In this document: piece after piece, positions 3,561-64,000 of the stretch
Numbering within the stretch: the stretch's first letter is position 1
How the letters are laid out: each line of letters opens with the position of its first letter
IMG/VR virus record: IMGVR_UViG_3300050821_007696
Location: 20,236-84,235 of that record
DNA length: 64,000 bases
From: a virus
Strand: one strand, 5' to 3'
Made by a program: the position numbers and the translations under genes
Notes under the pieces: generated by a model
What the model was told of the DNA's origin: nothing
The model's input: only the letters and a program-made list of their open reading frames with translations
Database searches by the model: none

Positions 3561-4144
3561 CCGGAGTCCAGGCGCTCACTATCACCCCCGACCCTGACCT
3601 GCCGTTCCTGTCAGCTGCCGCGGTGATCCGCGACGTCCAGAAGACCGAGCACCAGTGGTTCAGCCAGGGTGACCCGGCGTCCCCGACCCTGCCCTGGATG
3701 CCGTTCCAGCCGGCTGACTTCCTGTCGATCCTCTTCGAGTGCATCCCCGAGCTGACGGGCCGGGGCTTCCTTGACGTCGGGTGCGGCCCCGGCACCAAGA
3801 TGCTCCTGGCCCGTCACTTTTACGGGCTGAACGCCTGCGGCATCGAGATCGTGCCGGCGATGGCGAAGGCGGCTGGGCAGTACGGCGACGTCTGGAACGA
3901 CGACGCTCTCCAGATGCCTCCCGGCGCCTACGCCTCGTGGGACCTGGTCTGGCTGTACCGGCCGTTCCGCGACCGGCTGCTGGAAGAGCAGCTCGAAGCT
4001 CGCATCATGGACGAGATGCAGCCCGGCGCGATCCTGGCCGGCGGAGGCTGGGAGCTGTGCCCGGCGGCGGTCGGCTGGCCGCCCGTGATGGATGACTGGG
4101 AACTGCGGCGCGGTGCCTGGATGAAGCCTACGATGCAGTCATGA
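3557..4144 (+). CDS. Class I SAM-dependent methyltransferase
   Basis: A 195-residue protein with motif I GFLDVGCGPGTKMLLA (about residues 70-85), acidic strand CGIEIVP, and a motif IV-like WDLVWLYRPF. The substrate cannot be inferred from these motifs. GTG start overlapping the preceding small gene. Probably the last of the glycan-modifying group. Confidence 0.75.
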   Translation: MTGVQALTITPDPDLPFLSAAAVIRDVQKTEHQWFSQGDPASPTLPWMPFQPADFLSILFECIPELTGRGFLDVGCGPGTKMLLARHFYGLNACGIEIVPAMAKAAGQYGDVWNDDALQMPPGAYASWDLVWLYRPFRDRLLEEQLEARIMDEMQPGAILAGGGWELCPAAVGWPPVMDDWELRRGAWMKPTMQS

Positions 4145-4392
4145 CTCCCCGTCGTTACGTTTCAGTGCCGCACGAGCTGTCCGTGCTGACCTGGCCGGAA
4201 GACTCCCCGGCTGACTTCGAGGCCATGATCGGCGCCGAGAACGTGAACGCCTTCCCCGGTGGTATCCAGGTCCGCAACGACGAAGGCGAGTGGTTCACCC
4301 TGCGGGACGGGTGGGCCGTCAGCCTCGACAGCAACGGTATCCGGTCGGTGGAAAGCCGCGCGGTTATAGGCCAGAAGTACCGTCCTGCCTGA
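4141..4392 (+). CDS. Hypothetical phage protein (PGDYI-like)
   Basis: An 83-residue protein of a type common in phages: an opening strand with a key Trp (VLTWPED), a middle FPGGIQVRNDEGEWFTLRDGWAV, and a closing VIGQKYRPA. Such proteins have no firm function. The start overlaps the previous stop, and TACGAT lies six bases before the ATG. Confidence 0.6.
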   Translation: MTPRRYVSVPHELSVLTWPEDSPADFEAMIGAENVNAFPGGIQVRNDEGEWFTLRDGWAVSLDSNGIRSVESRAVIGQKYRPA

Positions 4393-16012: not shown

Positions 16013-16066
16013 GCGCTGCCGGGCGTTCGCCAATTGGCATTCGTGCTTACATTGGCCCGGCGGCGC
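16013..16066 (+). terminator. Long-loop hairpin; solo copy of the array repeat
   Basis: GCGCTGCCGGGC (16013-16024) pairs with GCCCGGCGGCGC (16055-16066) over 12 bp with one G-T pair; the loop is 30 bases. Inside the loop TTGGCATTCGT stands where the ~40-bp arrays near 62-64 kb carry TTGGTTCCCGT. It probably acts as a terminator before the tape measure gene, and it is the clearest dispersed copy of the array unit. The remaining ~100 bases to the next start hold only an RBS. Confidence 0.65.
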
Positions 16067-21425: not shown

Positions 21426-21621
21426 ACGGTTCCGGGCGGCACCCGCAGCCGGGCACCTGGTAGCCGTCATCCGGCGCCGACGGCTCGGCCGATACGTACA
21501 TGACGCTGACGGTGCCGCGCGGGCAGCGGTGCTGCACCAGGGGGGATGCCGTCGCGTTCTCCTGCACTCGTGAACTGCAGGCGGCGGCAGAGTGGGTTCC
21601 GTCTCCAAAGATGGCCCGCAC
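21424..21621 (-). CDS. Small Cys-containing protein, antisense to the operon direction
   Basis: A 65-residue frame starting MRAIFGDGTHSAAACSSRV and ending GYQVPGCGCRPEP. The only support is that its TAG stop coincides with the palindrome exactly as at copies 1 and 2, and that the sequence is otherwise empty. No RBS is obvious. The 113 bases to 21734 hold no other gene, only the GGAGGA RBS of the next plus-strand gene. Confidence 0.4.
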   Translation of the reverse strand: MRAIFGDGTHSAAACSSRVQENATASPLVQHRCPRGTVSVMYVSAEPSAPDDGYQVPGCGCRPEP

Positions 21622-44142: not shown

Positions 44143-44198
44143 CCGCCAGCCGGGCCATGTTAGGGACGTAACCCAGTGAGGCCGCGCCCGGCTGGCGG
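44143..44198 (+). terminator. Long-loop hairpin after the polysaccharide module
   Basis: CCGCCAGCCGGGC pairs perfectly with GCCCGGCTGGCGG (13 bp) across a 30-base loop, starting at the stop codon. Same architecture as the hairpins at 16013 and 40772. Confidence 0.75.
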
Positions 44199-58047: not shown

Positions 58048-58173
58048 CTAGTTCCCGCCCTTGCAGACGCACATAACGCACGTGCACTTGCACTTAGCGG
58101 GGCACGAGCACTGGATCGTGCTTACCGTCGCCCCGCAGCAGCTGTCCTTCGTCGTACTTTCCTTCCGGTTCAG
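58048..58173 (-). CDS. Metallothionein-like Cys-rich peptide (non-ATG start)
   Basis: A 41-residue frame ending ...DSCCGATVSTIQCSCPAKCKCTCVMCVCKGGN: ten Cys, several as C-x-C, dense enough for a metal-thiolate cluster. No ATG, GTG or TTG precedes the Cys stretch; CTG 58173 is the best start. Stop lies 16 bases before the next minus-strand gene. Confidence 0.45.
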   Translation of the reverse strand: MNRKESTTKDSCCGATVSTIQCSCPAKCKCTCVMCVCKGGN

Positions 58174-58194
58174 CGGCGCAGACAGACTGGGTAC

Positions 58195-58300
58195 CGCGTG
58201 TCAAGTAGCCGCCGGCGGCGTTGTCAAGTCGGGCCTCGTGGGTTAAGTGACCGCCGGCGGTGTAGCCAAGTTAGGTTTCGCGCGGTGAATGTCCGCCGTG
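58195..58300. repeat. Short cluster of array-type repeat units
   Basis: GCCGCCGGCGGCGT (about 58209), GGGCCTCGT, CCGCCGGCGGTGT (about 58250), TTAGGTTTCGC and CCGCCGTGCG (about 58292) follow each other at ~40-base spacing like the arrays at 62-64 kb. Read on the minus strand, TTGACA occurs twice, so the cluster may also carry promoters. The rest, to 58360, holds nothing visible. Confidence 0.6.
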
Positions 58301-58718: not shown

Positions 58719-59402
58719 TCAGTTTTCTCCTTCGGTTGCCGGTGCTTCTTCTCCCGACTCGCCGAGAGAACGTTCCTCCAGCGAGAGGTCGTAGCTGCCC
58801 GCCGCTGCCGCGGCCGAGGCGACCGGGGCACGGGACAGGTAGTCCGAAGACATCTTCCAGGCGTTGCGCTGCCCGGTGTTCGACGAGACCGTGTTCACCG
58901 ACAGGCCGCTGCGGGTGCCGATCCTGGCGCCCTCGTCGAAGGCCGCCTGCCCGCAGCCCATGTACAGCACCCGCCAGCCGTAAGCGTCCTGCTGGTGCTC
59001 AAGCGCCTCTTTCGCCTCGGGGCCGTCGTGCTCCACCCAGGTGTTGTGCTCGCCGTCGCTGTCGATCACCACGGTGACGTCCTCGGGCCGCTGGTCCCCG
59101 GGCAGCTCCGCGAGCTTGCGGCCCTCGGCGGCGACCGCCAGCACGACCGCGTCGTACAGGTTGGTGCCGCCGCGCGGCCGGATCTGGTAGCCGCGGACCG
59201 CTTCCGGGGTCTCGAAGGAGTGCACGCAGCGGATCTCGGTGTCGAAGTCCCACAGGCTGACCGTCACCTTGCCAGTACGGTGCGAGTCGCCTTCCGCAGC
59301 CAGGAACTCGTCGAGGCCGGCCTGCGCGCCCTCCAGGATCTTCTCCATGCTGCCCGACCGGTCCTGGATGACGACCCGGTGCCGGTAGCCCTTGCGCGTC
59401 AT
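58719..59402 (-). CDS. VWA-domain protein
   Basis: A 227-residue von Willebrand A fold: VVIQDRSGSMEKILEGAQAGLDEFLA gives the MIDAS D-x-S-x-S (residues 14-18), RPRGGTNLYDAVVLAV the conserved Thr, and VTVVIDSDGEHNTW the third metal motif. A disordered acidic tail follows. Common in large phages as an isolated gene; may act with an unseen AAA+ partner or bind a host protein. ATG preceded by AAGGAGAAG. Confidence 0.85.
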   Translation of the reverse strand: MTRKGYRHRVVIQDRSGSMEKILEGAQAGLDEFLAAEGDSHRTGKVTVSLWDFDTEIRCVHSFETPEAVRGYQIRPRGGTNLYDAVVLAVAAEGRKLAELPGDQRPEDVTVVIDSDGEHNTWVEHDGPEAKEALEHQQDAYGWRVLYMGCGQAAFDEGARIGTRSGLSVNTVSSNTGQRNAWKMSSDYLSRAPVASAAAAAGSYDLSLEERSLGESGEEAPATEGEN

Positions 59403-61678: not shown

Positions 61679-61975
61679 TCACCCGTGCTCTTTCCCGTAA
61701 TTCACGCCGTACAGGAACGCGTCGCGCGCCTCGGTTTTCTCCGGTGCGGTGTCGTCATAGCCCTCGCAGTGCGTCTCCCGCCAGTACTCCTCGAACGCTG
61801 CCTCCAGGCCGAACGGCTGCCCGTCGGCGCGCTCCAGGTTCGTGACCTTCAGGGTGTACCCGCCGGAACTCAGCCGCACGGGATTGGCGCCGGCGCGAGT
61901 CATCGCGGCTAGGGTGCCGTCCGGGTCCTCGCCGGACACCGTCACCTTCAGGTCCAGCGTCTTCGTCCTGCTCAT
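61679..61975 (-). CDS. Hypothetical protein downstream of array 1
   Basis: A 98-residue protein: strands TKTLDLKVTVSGEDPDGTLAAMTRAGANPVRLSSGGYTLKVTNL, then an acidic helical end (FGLEAAFEEYWRETHCEGYDDTAPEKTEARDAFLYGVNYG). ATG preceded by AGGAGGAAGAGC. Array 1 lies directly upstream, so it may form or control this gene's 5' region. The gap 61588-61678 between it and the ParB-like gene holds only the latter's RBS. Confidence 0.6.
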   Translation of the reverse strand: MSRTKTLDLKVTVSGEDPDGTLAAMTRAGANPVRLSSGGYTLKVTNLERADGQPFGLEAAFEEYWRETHCEGYDDTAPEKTEARDAFLYGVNYGKEHG

Positions 61976-62003: not shown

Positions 62004-62540
62004 GCCCGGCGTATTCCACGTGGCTGCCGCAGGGGTGACGGCCGGGCGTTATTACCGATGGCTGCCGTAGCAGGTACGGCCCGGCGCCTGCAAGCTGGTG
62101 CTCGTTTTCGAAGTGGCCGGGCGGCGTTACACACTGGGGTCGCGCGCCATGTTTGGCCGCCCGGCGTTATTCGCTTGGTGCCCGCAGATCTTGTGGCCGG
62201 GCGTTTCCAGCTTGGCTCCCGCTGATTCAGTGGCCCGGCGTACTTACGATGGAGCTGCCGTGCTTCGATTGGCCGGGCCGGGGCGTCTGTCGCGTGGTTC
62301 CCGTTATGAGGATGTCCCCTCTGCCCTGGCGTTCCTTCCATTGAGCCCTGTCCTGAGATTGGCCGGGCCGGGGCGTCTATCGCGTGGTTCCCGCTGCTCG
62401 TATGTCCCCTCTGCCCTGGCGTCTCGCCTTCGGTTCCCGTTTCCGTTACAGCCGGGCGGGGCGTACCCGCGATGGCTCCCGTGACCTACTCGGCCCCCTG
62501 CCCCGGCGTTACCCACACTGGGCCGCGTCTCCACATTGGC
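62004..62540. repeat. Array 1: about 14 units of ~40 bp with complementary cores
   Basis: Units start near 62004, 62040, 62078, 62115, 62155, 62195, 62232, 62271, 62314, 62361, 62403, 62451, 62491 and 62537. Each has a GC core ending in GCGT, 7-9 variable bases, a TTGGTTCCCGT-like motif and 8-9 variable bases. Cores alternate G-rich and C-rich, and each G-rich core is complementary to the next: GCCGGGC/GCCCGGC, GCCGGGCGGC/GCCGCCCGGC, GCCGGGC/GCCCGGC, then longer G-rich/C-rich pairs. No protein-coding signal. Confidence 0.85.
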
Positions 62541-62557
62541 CAGGGCAGGGAAACCCC

Positions 62558-63463
62558 TCAGCTGTGCAGCCCGCCCCCGGTCCGGTGCCTGCCCCGGCGC
62601 CTGCCCTCCTCGCCCGCCCGGCTCGCGCCGAACACCGGCTCCTGCCCCCCGGCCGTCAGCCACAGGTCCCGCAGGATCTCCTTCGCCGTGTGCCGCAGCG
62701 CGATCGCGTGCACGTGCGAGGGCTGAAACGGGTCGCCCGCCTCGGCGTAGCCCATCTTCGCCTTCTCCCGCTCGGCCAGCTCGCCGTAGAACTGCCCCGA
62801 GGTGTCCTGCGGGCGGGTCTTGCACTTGACGTACAGCGCCCCGGAGAACCCGCCCTCGCACTTCACCGAGTGCACCTTCAGCGCGTACTTCTCCTTCACC
62901 CGGTCGTACACGTGCCGGTACCCGGTGCCGCCCTTCGCGTTCGACTTCACCTGCGCCGACGCCAGCAGGTAGCCCAGCTTCTTCGCGTCGGGGCGGCCGT
63001 TCGCCATCAGTGCCTCCGCGTCCCCCTTCACGTCCCGGTTCTTCGGGGCGCCGCGGCCGGTGTACTGCCACAGCTGGCTCAGCATCCGCGGGTGCGGCTC
63101 GTCGTCCACCAGGTGCCGGTCGCTGCCGGTCCCCTCCCAGTGCCTCGGGTACGCCATCCGCGGGTCGCCGGTGATGCCCAGCAGCCGCGCCAGGGTGTGC
63201 TCCCCGATCCCCGGGGTCTCCCGCGCCCAGCTCTGCACCGTCTCCGGCACCGTCACCCGGTAGCAGGCCAGCAGCTCCTTCTCCGTCCGCTTCTCCGCCT
63301 CGGCGTACAGGTCCGCGACCGGCCCCAGGGCCTCGGTCGCGACCGTCCCCGACCGCTCCTTGTTGTCGAACGCGATCCGCGCGGCCTGCGCGTCCGCGAA
63401 CGCCTCCGCCCACATCCGCAGCTCCGCGTACGAGCCCGGGTTGGTGCGCTTCGGTGTCCTCAT
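62558..63463 (-). CDS. Helix-hairpin-helix protein resembling the IS110 C-terminal domain
   Basis: A 301-residue protein. WARETPGIGEHTLARLLGITGDPR (about residues 88-111) is a helix-hairpin-helix of the kind that opens the IS110/IS116/IS902 transposase C-terminal domain. LWQYTGRGAP (about residues 139-148) and HAIALRHTAKEILRDLW (about residues 261-277) match later blocks of that domain. The N-terminal ~85 residues are helical; the DEDD RuvC-like domain of a full IS110 enzyme is absent, and no clear SG nucleophile is seen. ATG 63463 follows AGGAGGAAC. Arrays flank the gene on both sides, which makes a functional link plausible. Confidence 0.65.
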   Translation of the reverse strand: MRTPKRTNPGSYAELRMWAEAFADAQAARIAFDNKERSGTVATEALGPVADLYAEAEKRTEKELLACYRVTVPETVQSWARETPGIGEHTLARLLGITGDPRMAYPRHWEGTGSDRHLVDDEPHPRMLSQLWQYTGRGAPKNRDVKGDAEALMANGRPDAKKLGYLLASAQVKSNAKGGTGYRHVYDRVKEKYALKVHSVKCEGGFSGALYVKCKTRPQDTSGQFYGELAEREKAKMGYAEAGDPFQPSHVHAIALRHTAKEILRDLWLTAGGQEPVFGASRAGEEGRRRGRHRTGGGLHS

Positions 63464-63479: not shown

Positions 63480-64000
63480 GCCCGGCGGCGTAAAGCCCTT
63501 GGTTTCCGTACCTGGTACGGCCGCCTGGCGTGTTCGGTGCTGAGCCTTGTTATCCTGCTGGCCGGCGGCGCTGGCATCTTGGGTACCGCCTAGCGTGTAG
63601 CCGCCTGGCGTGCCTGTTCTGGTCCTCGTGCAACATGTGGCCGGCGGCGTTTAGTGATTGGCTTCCGTCAGTTCGCTAGCCGCCCGGCGTGTCTCATTTA
63701 GTTTCCGCTGAACCGATAGCCGGCGGCGCCTGATCCACGGTTCTCGCCCTTCCACTGGCCGCCCGGCGTTCGATGTTCGGCTGTCGCGTAAACGGTGGCC
63801 TGGCGGCGCTGATCCTCTGGCTCCCGCGTTTTCGGTTTAGCCGCCCGGCGTATTTTCTCTGGTCCGCGTCGGGACTGTGGCCGGCGGCGTCCGGATGGTG
63901 GTTTCCGTCACTATATTGGCCGCCTGGCGCTTCCCCAGCGGGGCTCGTCTCCGTTCATAGCCGGCGGCGTCGCGATAGTGGTTCCCGTCATTAGACTGGC
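63480..64000. repeat. Array 2: 13 alternating ~40-bp units, running off the window
   Basis: Cores start at 63480, 63519, 63560, 63600, 63639, 63679, 63719, 63757, 63797, 63840, 63879, 63918 and 63960, spacing 38-43. They alternate strictly between form A (GCCGGCGGCGT) and form B (GCCGCCTGGCGT or GCCGCCCGGCGT), which can pair with one bulge. Between cores lies a TTGGTTTCCGT-like motif flanked by variable bases. The final bases, TGGC, begin another unit, so the array continues. It is immediately upstream of the HhH gene. Confidence 0.88.

What the first reader, a model, noticed from the sequence alone, without database searches (positions are those of the whole stretch)
62004..62540. Array 1 shows pairwise covariation of core length and sequence
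In array 1 the cores change from unit to unit, but each G-rich core is matched by the following C-rich core: GCCGGGC with GCCCGGC, the 10-base GCCGGGCGGC with GCCGCCCGGC, back to the 7-base pair, then two GCCGGGCCGGGGC units each followed by a CCCC...GCCCTGGC unit. The match is to the next C-rich core, not the previous one (short-short, long-long, short-short in order). Such compensatory change inside one molecule is strong evidence that A pairs with the following B, giving hairpins with ~30-base loops holding the TTGGTTCCCGT motif.
Basis: seen in the sequence. Interest (0 to 1): 0.85.

Follow-up and report, generated by a model that had tools for sequence, protein, structure and literature searches.

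The report
Phage TIGR guide-RNA array with TasA
The repeats are an array of small two-part guide RNAs (a TIGR array) on either side of the gene for their partner protein TasA in an environmental bacteriophage, a recently described RNA-guided DNA-binding system, here in an unusual layout where neighbouring guides share inverted stems.

Summary
The repeats are real, but they are read on the minus strand and form part of a known system, TIGR-Tas (Faure et al., Science 2025, PMC12045711). Each unit is stem-C|CA, a 9-nt spacer, CG-N4-CCA, a second 9-nt spacer, C|G-stem: 30 nt between arms, with box C/D-like ends on both edge and loop repeats. Arrays 1 and 2 flank a 301-aa protein. Its family profile matches solved TasR (9MTY, E 5e-20) and TasH (E 3.5e-14), and so does its predicted fold. 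No nuclease domain was found, so it is a TasA. Relatives support stem pairing strongly: in 28 further loci 100 of 181 motif-selected loops on the tas strand have Watson-Crick stems of at least 6 bp, against 1 of 29 on the other strand and 2 of 1086 in shifted registers. The claim that each core matches only the following one fails: most cores can pair with either neighbour. Three features seem new against the main text read: shared, alternately inverted edges; solo units scattered in intergenic gaps; hypervariable spacers on conserved stems in cultivated M. smegmatis phages. No spacer target was found; function remains inferred.

The parts
62004..62552 (-). TIGR array 1: 14 edge cores, 13 loops of 30-32 nt; begins 5 nt after the tasA stop codon in RNA sense
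   Evidence: sequence
62494..62552 (-). First unit of array 1 in RNA sense: hairpin with 14-bp stem, 5' arm not shared
62116..62165 (-). Unit with the 10-base cores GCCGGGCGGC / GCCGCCCGGC, 10 bp in register, 30-nt loop
62260..62422 (-). Segmental duplication (73 nt at 62260-62332 and 62350-62422, 86% identical); most differences fall in spacers
   Evidence: sequence
62558..63463 (-). tasA, 301 aa, Nop/IS110-C-terminal-like Tas protein without a recognised nuclease domain
63480..64000 (-). TIGR array 2, upstream of tasA, cut by the contig end; alternating GCC(A/G)GGCGGC and GCCGCCGGC-type edges
61679..61975 (-). 98-aa ORF downstream of array 1, no family match; array 1 sits between tasA and this gene
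58171..58260 (-). Two dispersed TIGR-like units sharing an edge, intergenic
44143..44198 (+). Dispersed solo TIGR-like unit, 13-bp stem, intergenic, plus strand
21576..21620 (-). Dispersed solo TIGR-like unit, 7-bp stem, intergenic
16018..16061 (-). Dispersed solo TIGR-like unit, 7-bp stem, intergenic

Best explanation
Arrays 1 and 2 are a TIGR array of the stem-loop type serving the TasA encoded between them. The minus strand is transcribed as part of the tasA transcription unit and processed into short tigRNAs. Each holds two 9-nt spacers bounded by box C (CCA) and box D (CG) in both the edge and the loop repeat. The palindromic edges close each unit. A TasA dimer would bind one tigRNA and place spacer A on one DNA strand and spacer B on the other, so binding a chosen site without cutting it, because no nuclease domain is present. 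Shown here: anatomy, stem pairing across relatives, linkage to Tas, kinship of the protein to solved TasR/TasH. Inferred from the published homologues: transcription, processing, DNA binding. The biological role (blocking or bending DNA of competitors, or regulation) is speculative.
For: Unit anatomy with 30-nt loops and two 9-nt spacers. Tas profile versus PDB: TasR 9MTY E 5.4e-20, TasH 21KL E 3.5e-14 (9MTY is the published TasR). AlphaFold model pLDDT 82, best Foldseek matches TasH and TasR, E 1e-6 to 1e-5, then IS621/ISCro4. Motif-only loops: stems of at least 6 bp in 100/181 on the tas strand, 1/29 on the other, 2/1086 shifted; in the window phage and its three nearest relatives 69/129 on the tas strand, 0-1 in shifted registers and 0 in shuffles. 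Hairpins found on the tas strand in nearly all loci reached by Tas protein homology alone, down to 26-30% identity. In 15 Fromanvirus phages spacers differ at 52-69% of sites while stems differ at 0-13% and the tasA start at 3%. Published rules for stem-loop TIGR arrays with TasA.
Against: No RNA or binding data for this phage. No spacer target found in own genome, relatives or two exact scans of IMG/VR. Units are not separated by linkers as in the published stem-loop array. Some edges in the middle of array 1 pair poorly in register (0-3 bp), and a few box motifs deviate (CA, TCA, CCG). No promoter or terminator was recognised.
Confidence: 0.94

Rival explanations
1. The repeats are structural or regulatory RNA hairpins (for example processing or stability elements in an operon) that bind a phage protein, with the 9-nt stretches being unconstrained loop sequence rather than guides.
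For: Hairpins lie between genes and in the direction of local transcription; targets are unknown.
Against: Spacer length is fixed at 9+9 with few exceptions although sequence is free; the partner protein is a relative of enzymes proven to use exactly this RNA as a guide. In Fromanvirus whole spacers are replaced while the flanks stay nearly identical, which neutral drift next to conserved DNA would not give.
Confidence: 0.05
2. The protein is an IS110-type transposase and the hairpins are parts of a bridge RNA or remains of a transposon.
For: PHROG 4285 is called transposase; Omega gp21 was described as an IS110-like insertion with a 5-bp duplication; weaker fold matches to IS621 and ISCro4.
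Against: 301 aa with no DEDD domain found; nearest solved relatives by sequence and fold are TasR and TasH; many tandem single-loop units rather than one two-loop bridge RNA.
Confidence: 0.02
3. Chance symmetry of very GC-rich tandem repeats (a minisatellite), or double-stranded DNA binding sites such as iterons.
For: Whole-array folding energy equals shuffled controls.
Against: Boxes are direct repeats while cores alternate in inverted form, which a dsDNA site would not need; register and strand specificity in relatives.
Confidence: 0.01

Closest known systems
TIGR-TasA with stem-loop arrays (Faure et al. 2025, PMC12045711, Fig. 7; Peromyscus gut contig)
   Same: Solo Nop-domain protein; tandem hairpins with variable palindromic arms; two spacers of 8-12 nt between box C and box D; sub-arrays on either side of the gene; phage origin.
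   Different: Here neighbouring units share one core without linkers, and cores alternate X / reverse complement of X; solo units also lie far from tas.
Dual-repeat TIGR arrays with TasR/TasH (same paper; PDB 9MTY, 21KL)
   [quoted passage not shown] about 37-nt period; 9-nt spacers; edge and loop repeats carry the same box motifs.
   Different: Published edges are one constant repeat; here they alternate in inverted form. No HNH or RuvC domain here. Box D is CG rather than UG.
IS110 recombinases with bridge RNA (IS621, ISCro4)
   Same: Nop-like RNA-binding fold; split guides in a loop.
   Different: No DEDD domain, no two-loop bridge RNA, no donor/target pair.
Omega gp21 'IS110-like transposon' and Fromanvirus 'transposase' genes of mycobacteriophages
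   Different: They have separate stem-loop units with short linkers; the window has mostly shared edges.

Membership tests
TIGR-Tas | Nop-domain Tas protein encoded next to the array | tested here: met
TIGR-Tas | Array units with two spacers of 8-12 nt, usually 9 | tested here: met
   9+9 in most units, 10 in a few
[quoted passage not shown]
   C|CA and C|G at edges, CG-N4-CCA in loops; box C CCA as published, box D CG instead of UG
TIGR-Tas | Several units, often 5-15, upstream and/or downstream of tas | tested here: met
   13 loops downstream; 12 complete loops upstream plus a cut one at the contig end
TIGR-Tas | Transcribed and processed into guide RNAs bound by Tas | not testable with these tools
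   needs RNA sequencing
TIGR-Tas | Tandem-spacer DNA targeting | not testable with these tools
   sequence search for targets gave none above chance
TIGR stem-loop array subtype | Variable palindromic sequences at the edge positions | tested here: met
TIGR stem-loop array subtype | Separate hairpins divided by linkers | tested here: not met
   neighbouring units share edges in arrays 1 and 2; linkers are present in relatives
TIGR dual-repeat subtype | Edge repeat of constant sequence within a locus | tested here: not met
   edges alternate in inverted form and vary in length
TasA class | No HNH or RuvC nuclease domain | tested here: met
   (no Pfam match), (model starts with the coiled-coil helices)
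IS110 transposase | N-terminal DEDD catalytic domain | tested here: not met
   no such domain found
CRISPR array | Identical repeats of 25-36 nt with spacers of similar size | tested here: not met

The most novel reading that the evidence does not exclude
A third TIGR layout, in which most edges serve two neighbouring guides by alternating in inverted form, combined with solo guides spread through intergenic gaps of the genome in snoRNA-like fashion, in phages whose spacers are exchanged rapidly as part of phage-phage or phage-host conflict.
Probability: 0.4. Interest if true: 0.8.

Novelty: new variant of a known kind. Interest (0 to 1): 0.62.

Why it matters
What TIGR systems target in nature and how their arrays change are stated as open in the original paper, partly because most loci are on metagenome contigs. 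About 74 cultivated Mycobacterium smegmatis phages carry the same kind of locus. In the 15 compared, tasA and stems are nearly fixed and spacers are replaced. That makes targets and turnover testable in a laboratory system. The shared inverted edges give a natural intermediate between dual-repeat and stem-loop arrays and a clear question about processing. Scattered solo units suggest that searches restricted to arrays near tas miss part of the guide set.

Tried and rejected
Whole-array folding against shuffles: no signal on either strand, judged insensitive. Rfam: only tRNAs. Near DNA relatives in GenBank phages: only tRNA matches. Pfam on the protein and on 17 relatives: nothing relevant; single-sequence PDB search: nothing; the profile was needed. 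Self-targets, in the orientation derived from the paper and the opposite one: no excess over shuffled spacer pairs. Cross-targets in 0.8 Mb of held phage DNA: none. Two Fromanvirus spacer pairs scanned exactly in IMG/VR: one gene-start site in six related contigs and one single site, both about what chance gives by my estimate. A genus-wide host scan was not possible. Selection bias of the stem alignment A2 (chosen for pairing) was recognised, so pairing statistics rest on motif-only selections. Hammerhead, twister and other ribozyme ideas were dropped once the Tas link appeared.

Full report
What was checked. The window is the right end of an 84,235-base virus record; no near DNA relative exists among GenBank phages beyond tRNA genes. 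Genes at this end run on the minus strand. The repeats of the finding occupy 62004-62552, and a second set occupies 63480-64000, where the contig ends.

Anatomy. Read on the minus strand, each unit is: stem arm ending in C, then CA, 9 nt, CG, 4 nt, CCA, 9 nt, C, then a stem arm starting with G. The stretch between arms is 30 nt in most units and 31-32 in a few. Within 155 such units selected for a stem and pooled from many phages, the conserved positions are the CA, CG and CCA letters and the inner part of the stem, whereas the two 9-nt stretches are free in sequence.

Pairing. In array 1 the 14 cores give 13 neighbour pairs with 14,5,3,0,3,0,7,7,7,10,7,7,7 in-register base pairs. Free reordering of cores never reached the observed sum (0 of 5000); reordering that keeps the alternation reached it in 92 of 5000, so the information in order is modest in array 1, and there is none in array 2 (4273 of 5000). 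Folding the entire array is no better than shuffles.

Relatives decide the question. Loci were fetched by similarity of the 301-aa protein alone, without using the repeats. Nearly all of them show the same hairpins on the same strand as the gene. To avoid circularity, loops were then chosen by the loop motif only. In 28 loci, 100 of 181 motif matches on the tas strand have perfect Watson-Crick stems of at least 6 bp, against 1 of 29 on the other strand and 2 of 1086 when the partner is slid by 1-3 bases. In the window phage and its three nearest relatives the tas-strand count is 69 of 129, with at most one in any shifted register and none in shuffled sequence. The stems differ between units and phages, so this is compensatory change on a large scale.

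The partner protein. The ORF between the arrays (62558-63463, minus) is PHROG 4285 'transposase'. A profile of 18 relatives matches TasR 9MTY at E 5.4e-20 and TasH 21KL at E 3.5e-14 in the PDB; the TIGR-Tas paper names 9MTY as its TasR structure. The AlphaFold model (mean pLDDT 82) has TasH and TasR as its best Foldseek matches, followed by the IS110-family recombinases. No nuclease domain was recognised, which makes it a TasA in that nomenclature.

Known system. The paper describes stem-loop TIGR arrays beside TasA proteins: two 8-12 nt spacers flanked by boxes C and D, with variable but palindromic sequences where edge repeats would be. Everything testable by sequence is met. TasR and TasH tigRNAs guide DNA binding with spacer A on one strand and spacer B on the other; for TasA the function is not established in the paper.

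What differs. First, the published stem-loop units are separate and joined by linkers; here neighbouring units share a core and the cores alternate between a sequence and its reverse complement, with a period of about 37 nt, as also in L004 and L023. Most cores carry GCC at the 5' end and GGC at the 3' end, so they can close the unit on either side. This looks like an intermediate between the two published layouts. The main text does not describe it; the supplements could not be read. Second, single units or pairs lie far from tas in this phage and in two relatives. By a crude gene of 42 such units fall between genes although about 70% of the DNA is coding. Third, about 74 cultivated mycobacteriophages carry a matching region before a tas gene. 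Among 15 aligned, spacer sites differ pairwise at 0.52-0.69 per base, stems at 0-0.13, the tasA start at 0.027 and the gene before it at 0.008. Several spacer pairs recur as sets in different phages. Within array 1 a 73-nt duplicated segment (86% identical) also differs mainly in spacers.

Mechanism, with status. Shown: unit anatomy, strand, pairing, linkage, protein kinship, spacer turnover in relatives. Inferred from homologues: transcription and processing into guide RNAs, a TasA dimer holding one RNA, DNA binding without cleavage. Unknown: targets. Own genome, relatives and two scans of IMG/VR gave nothing beyond what is expected by chance. Because cores are shared, complete 7-bp stems cannot form on all units of one transcript at once; either alternate units are used or each edge is cut, leaving half-stems. 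RNA sequencing would tell.

Verdict. An ordinary-looking repeat turns out to be a TIGR-TasA locus: a new variant of a known kind.

Noticed in passing
L058, L078-L091 (Fromanvirus mycobacteriophages, gap before the 'transposase' / 'DNA binding' gene): Up to five stem-loop units with near-invariant stems and hypervariable spacers in cultivated M. smegmatis phages; some spacer pairs recur together in different phages.
   Followed up: partly
L020:5002-7354 (110,865-base contig, probably mycobacteriophage Omega by length, not verified): The 'IS110-like transposon' described in Omega (gp21, 5-bp target duplication, absent from LittleE and Courthouse) appears to be a TIGR-TasA locus, suggesting that such a locus can be gained as a unit.
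   Followed up: partly
window 16018-16061, 21576-21620, 44143-44198, 58171-58260; record position 3803-3872: Solo or paired TIGR-like hairpins in intergenic gaps far from tasA.
   Followed up: partly
L027:6807-8072 minus strand (69-kb contig): About twelve hairpins of the same type beside a 421-aa ORF with a KTKGLGD...SALW pattern that the Tas profile does not detect; possibly a divergent Tas.
   Followed up: no
L061:3012-3083 and 4117-4186 (Gordonia phage Morrissey): Two units with 20-21 bp stems of the same sequence on either side of the tas gene, with different spacers.
   Followed up: no
L086:168-428 (phage Chanagan): An annotated 'hypothetical protein' lies across TIGR units, probably a false gene call; annotated gp50 of phage Rich (L059:3126-4109) also appears to start inside units.
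   Followed up: no
L102-L107: One Fromanvirus spacer pair (AGACCCACG / TCAGTCATG) exactly matches a gene-start site conserved in six IMG/VR contigs with a 1-nt gap; one independent match, about chance level by estimate.
   Followed up: partly
window 58719-59402 minus strand: VWA-like protein (weak DUF2201 and PHROG 7371 matches) in the same gene cluster.
   Followed up: no
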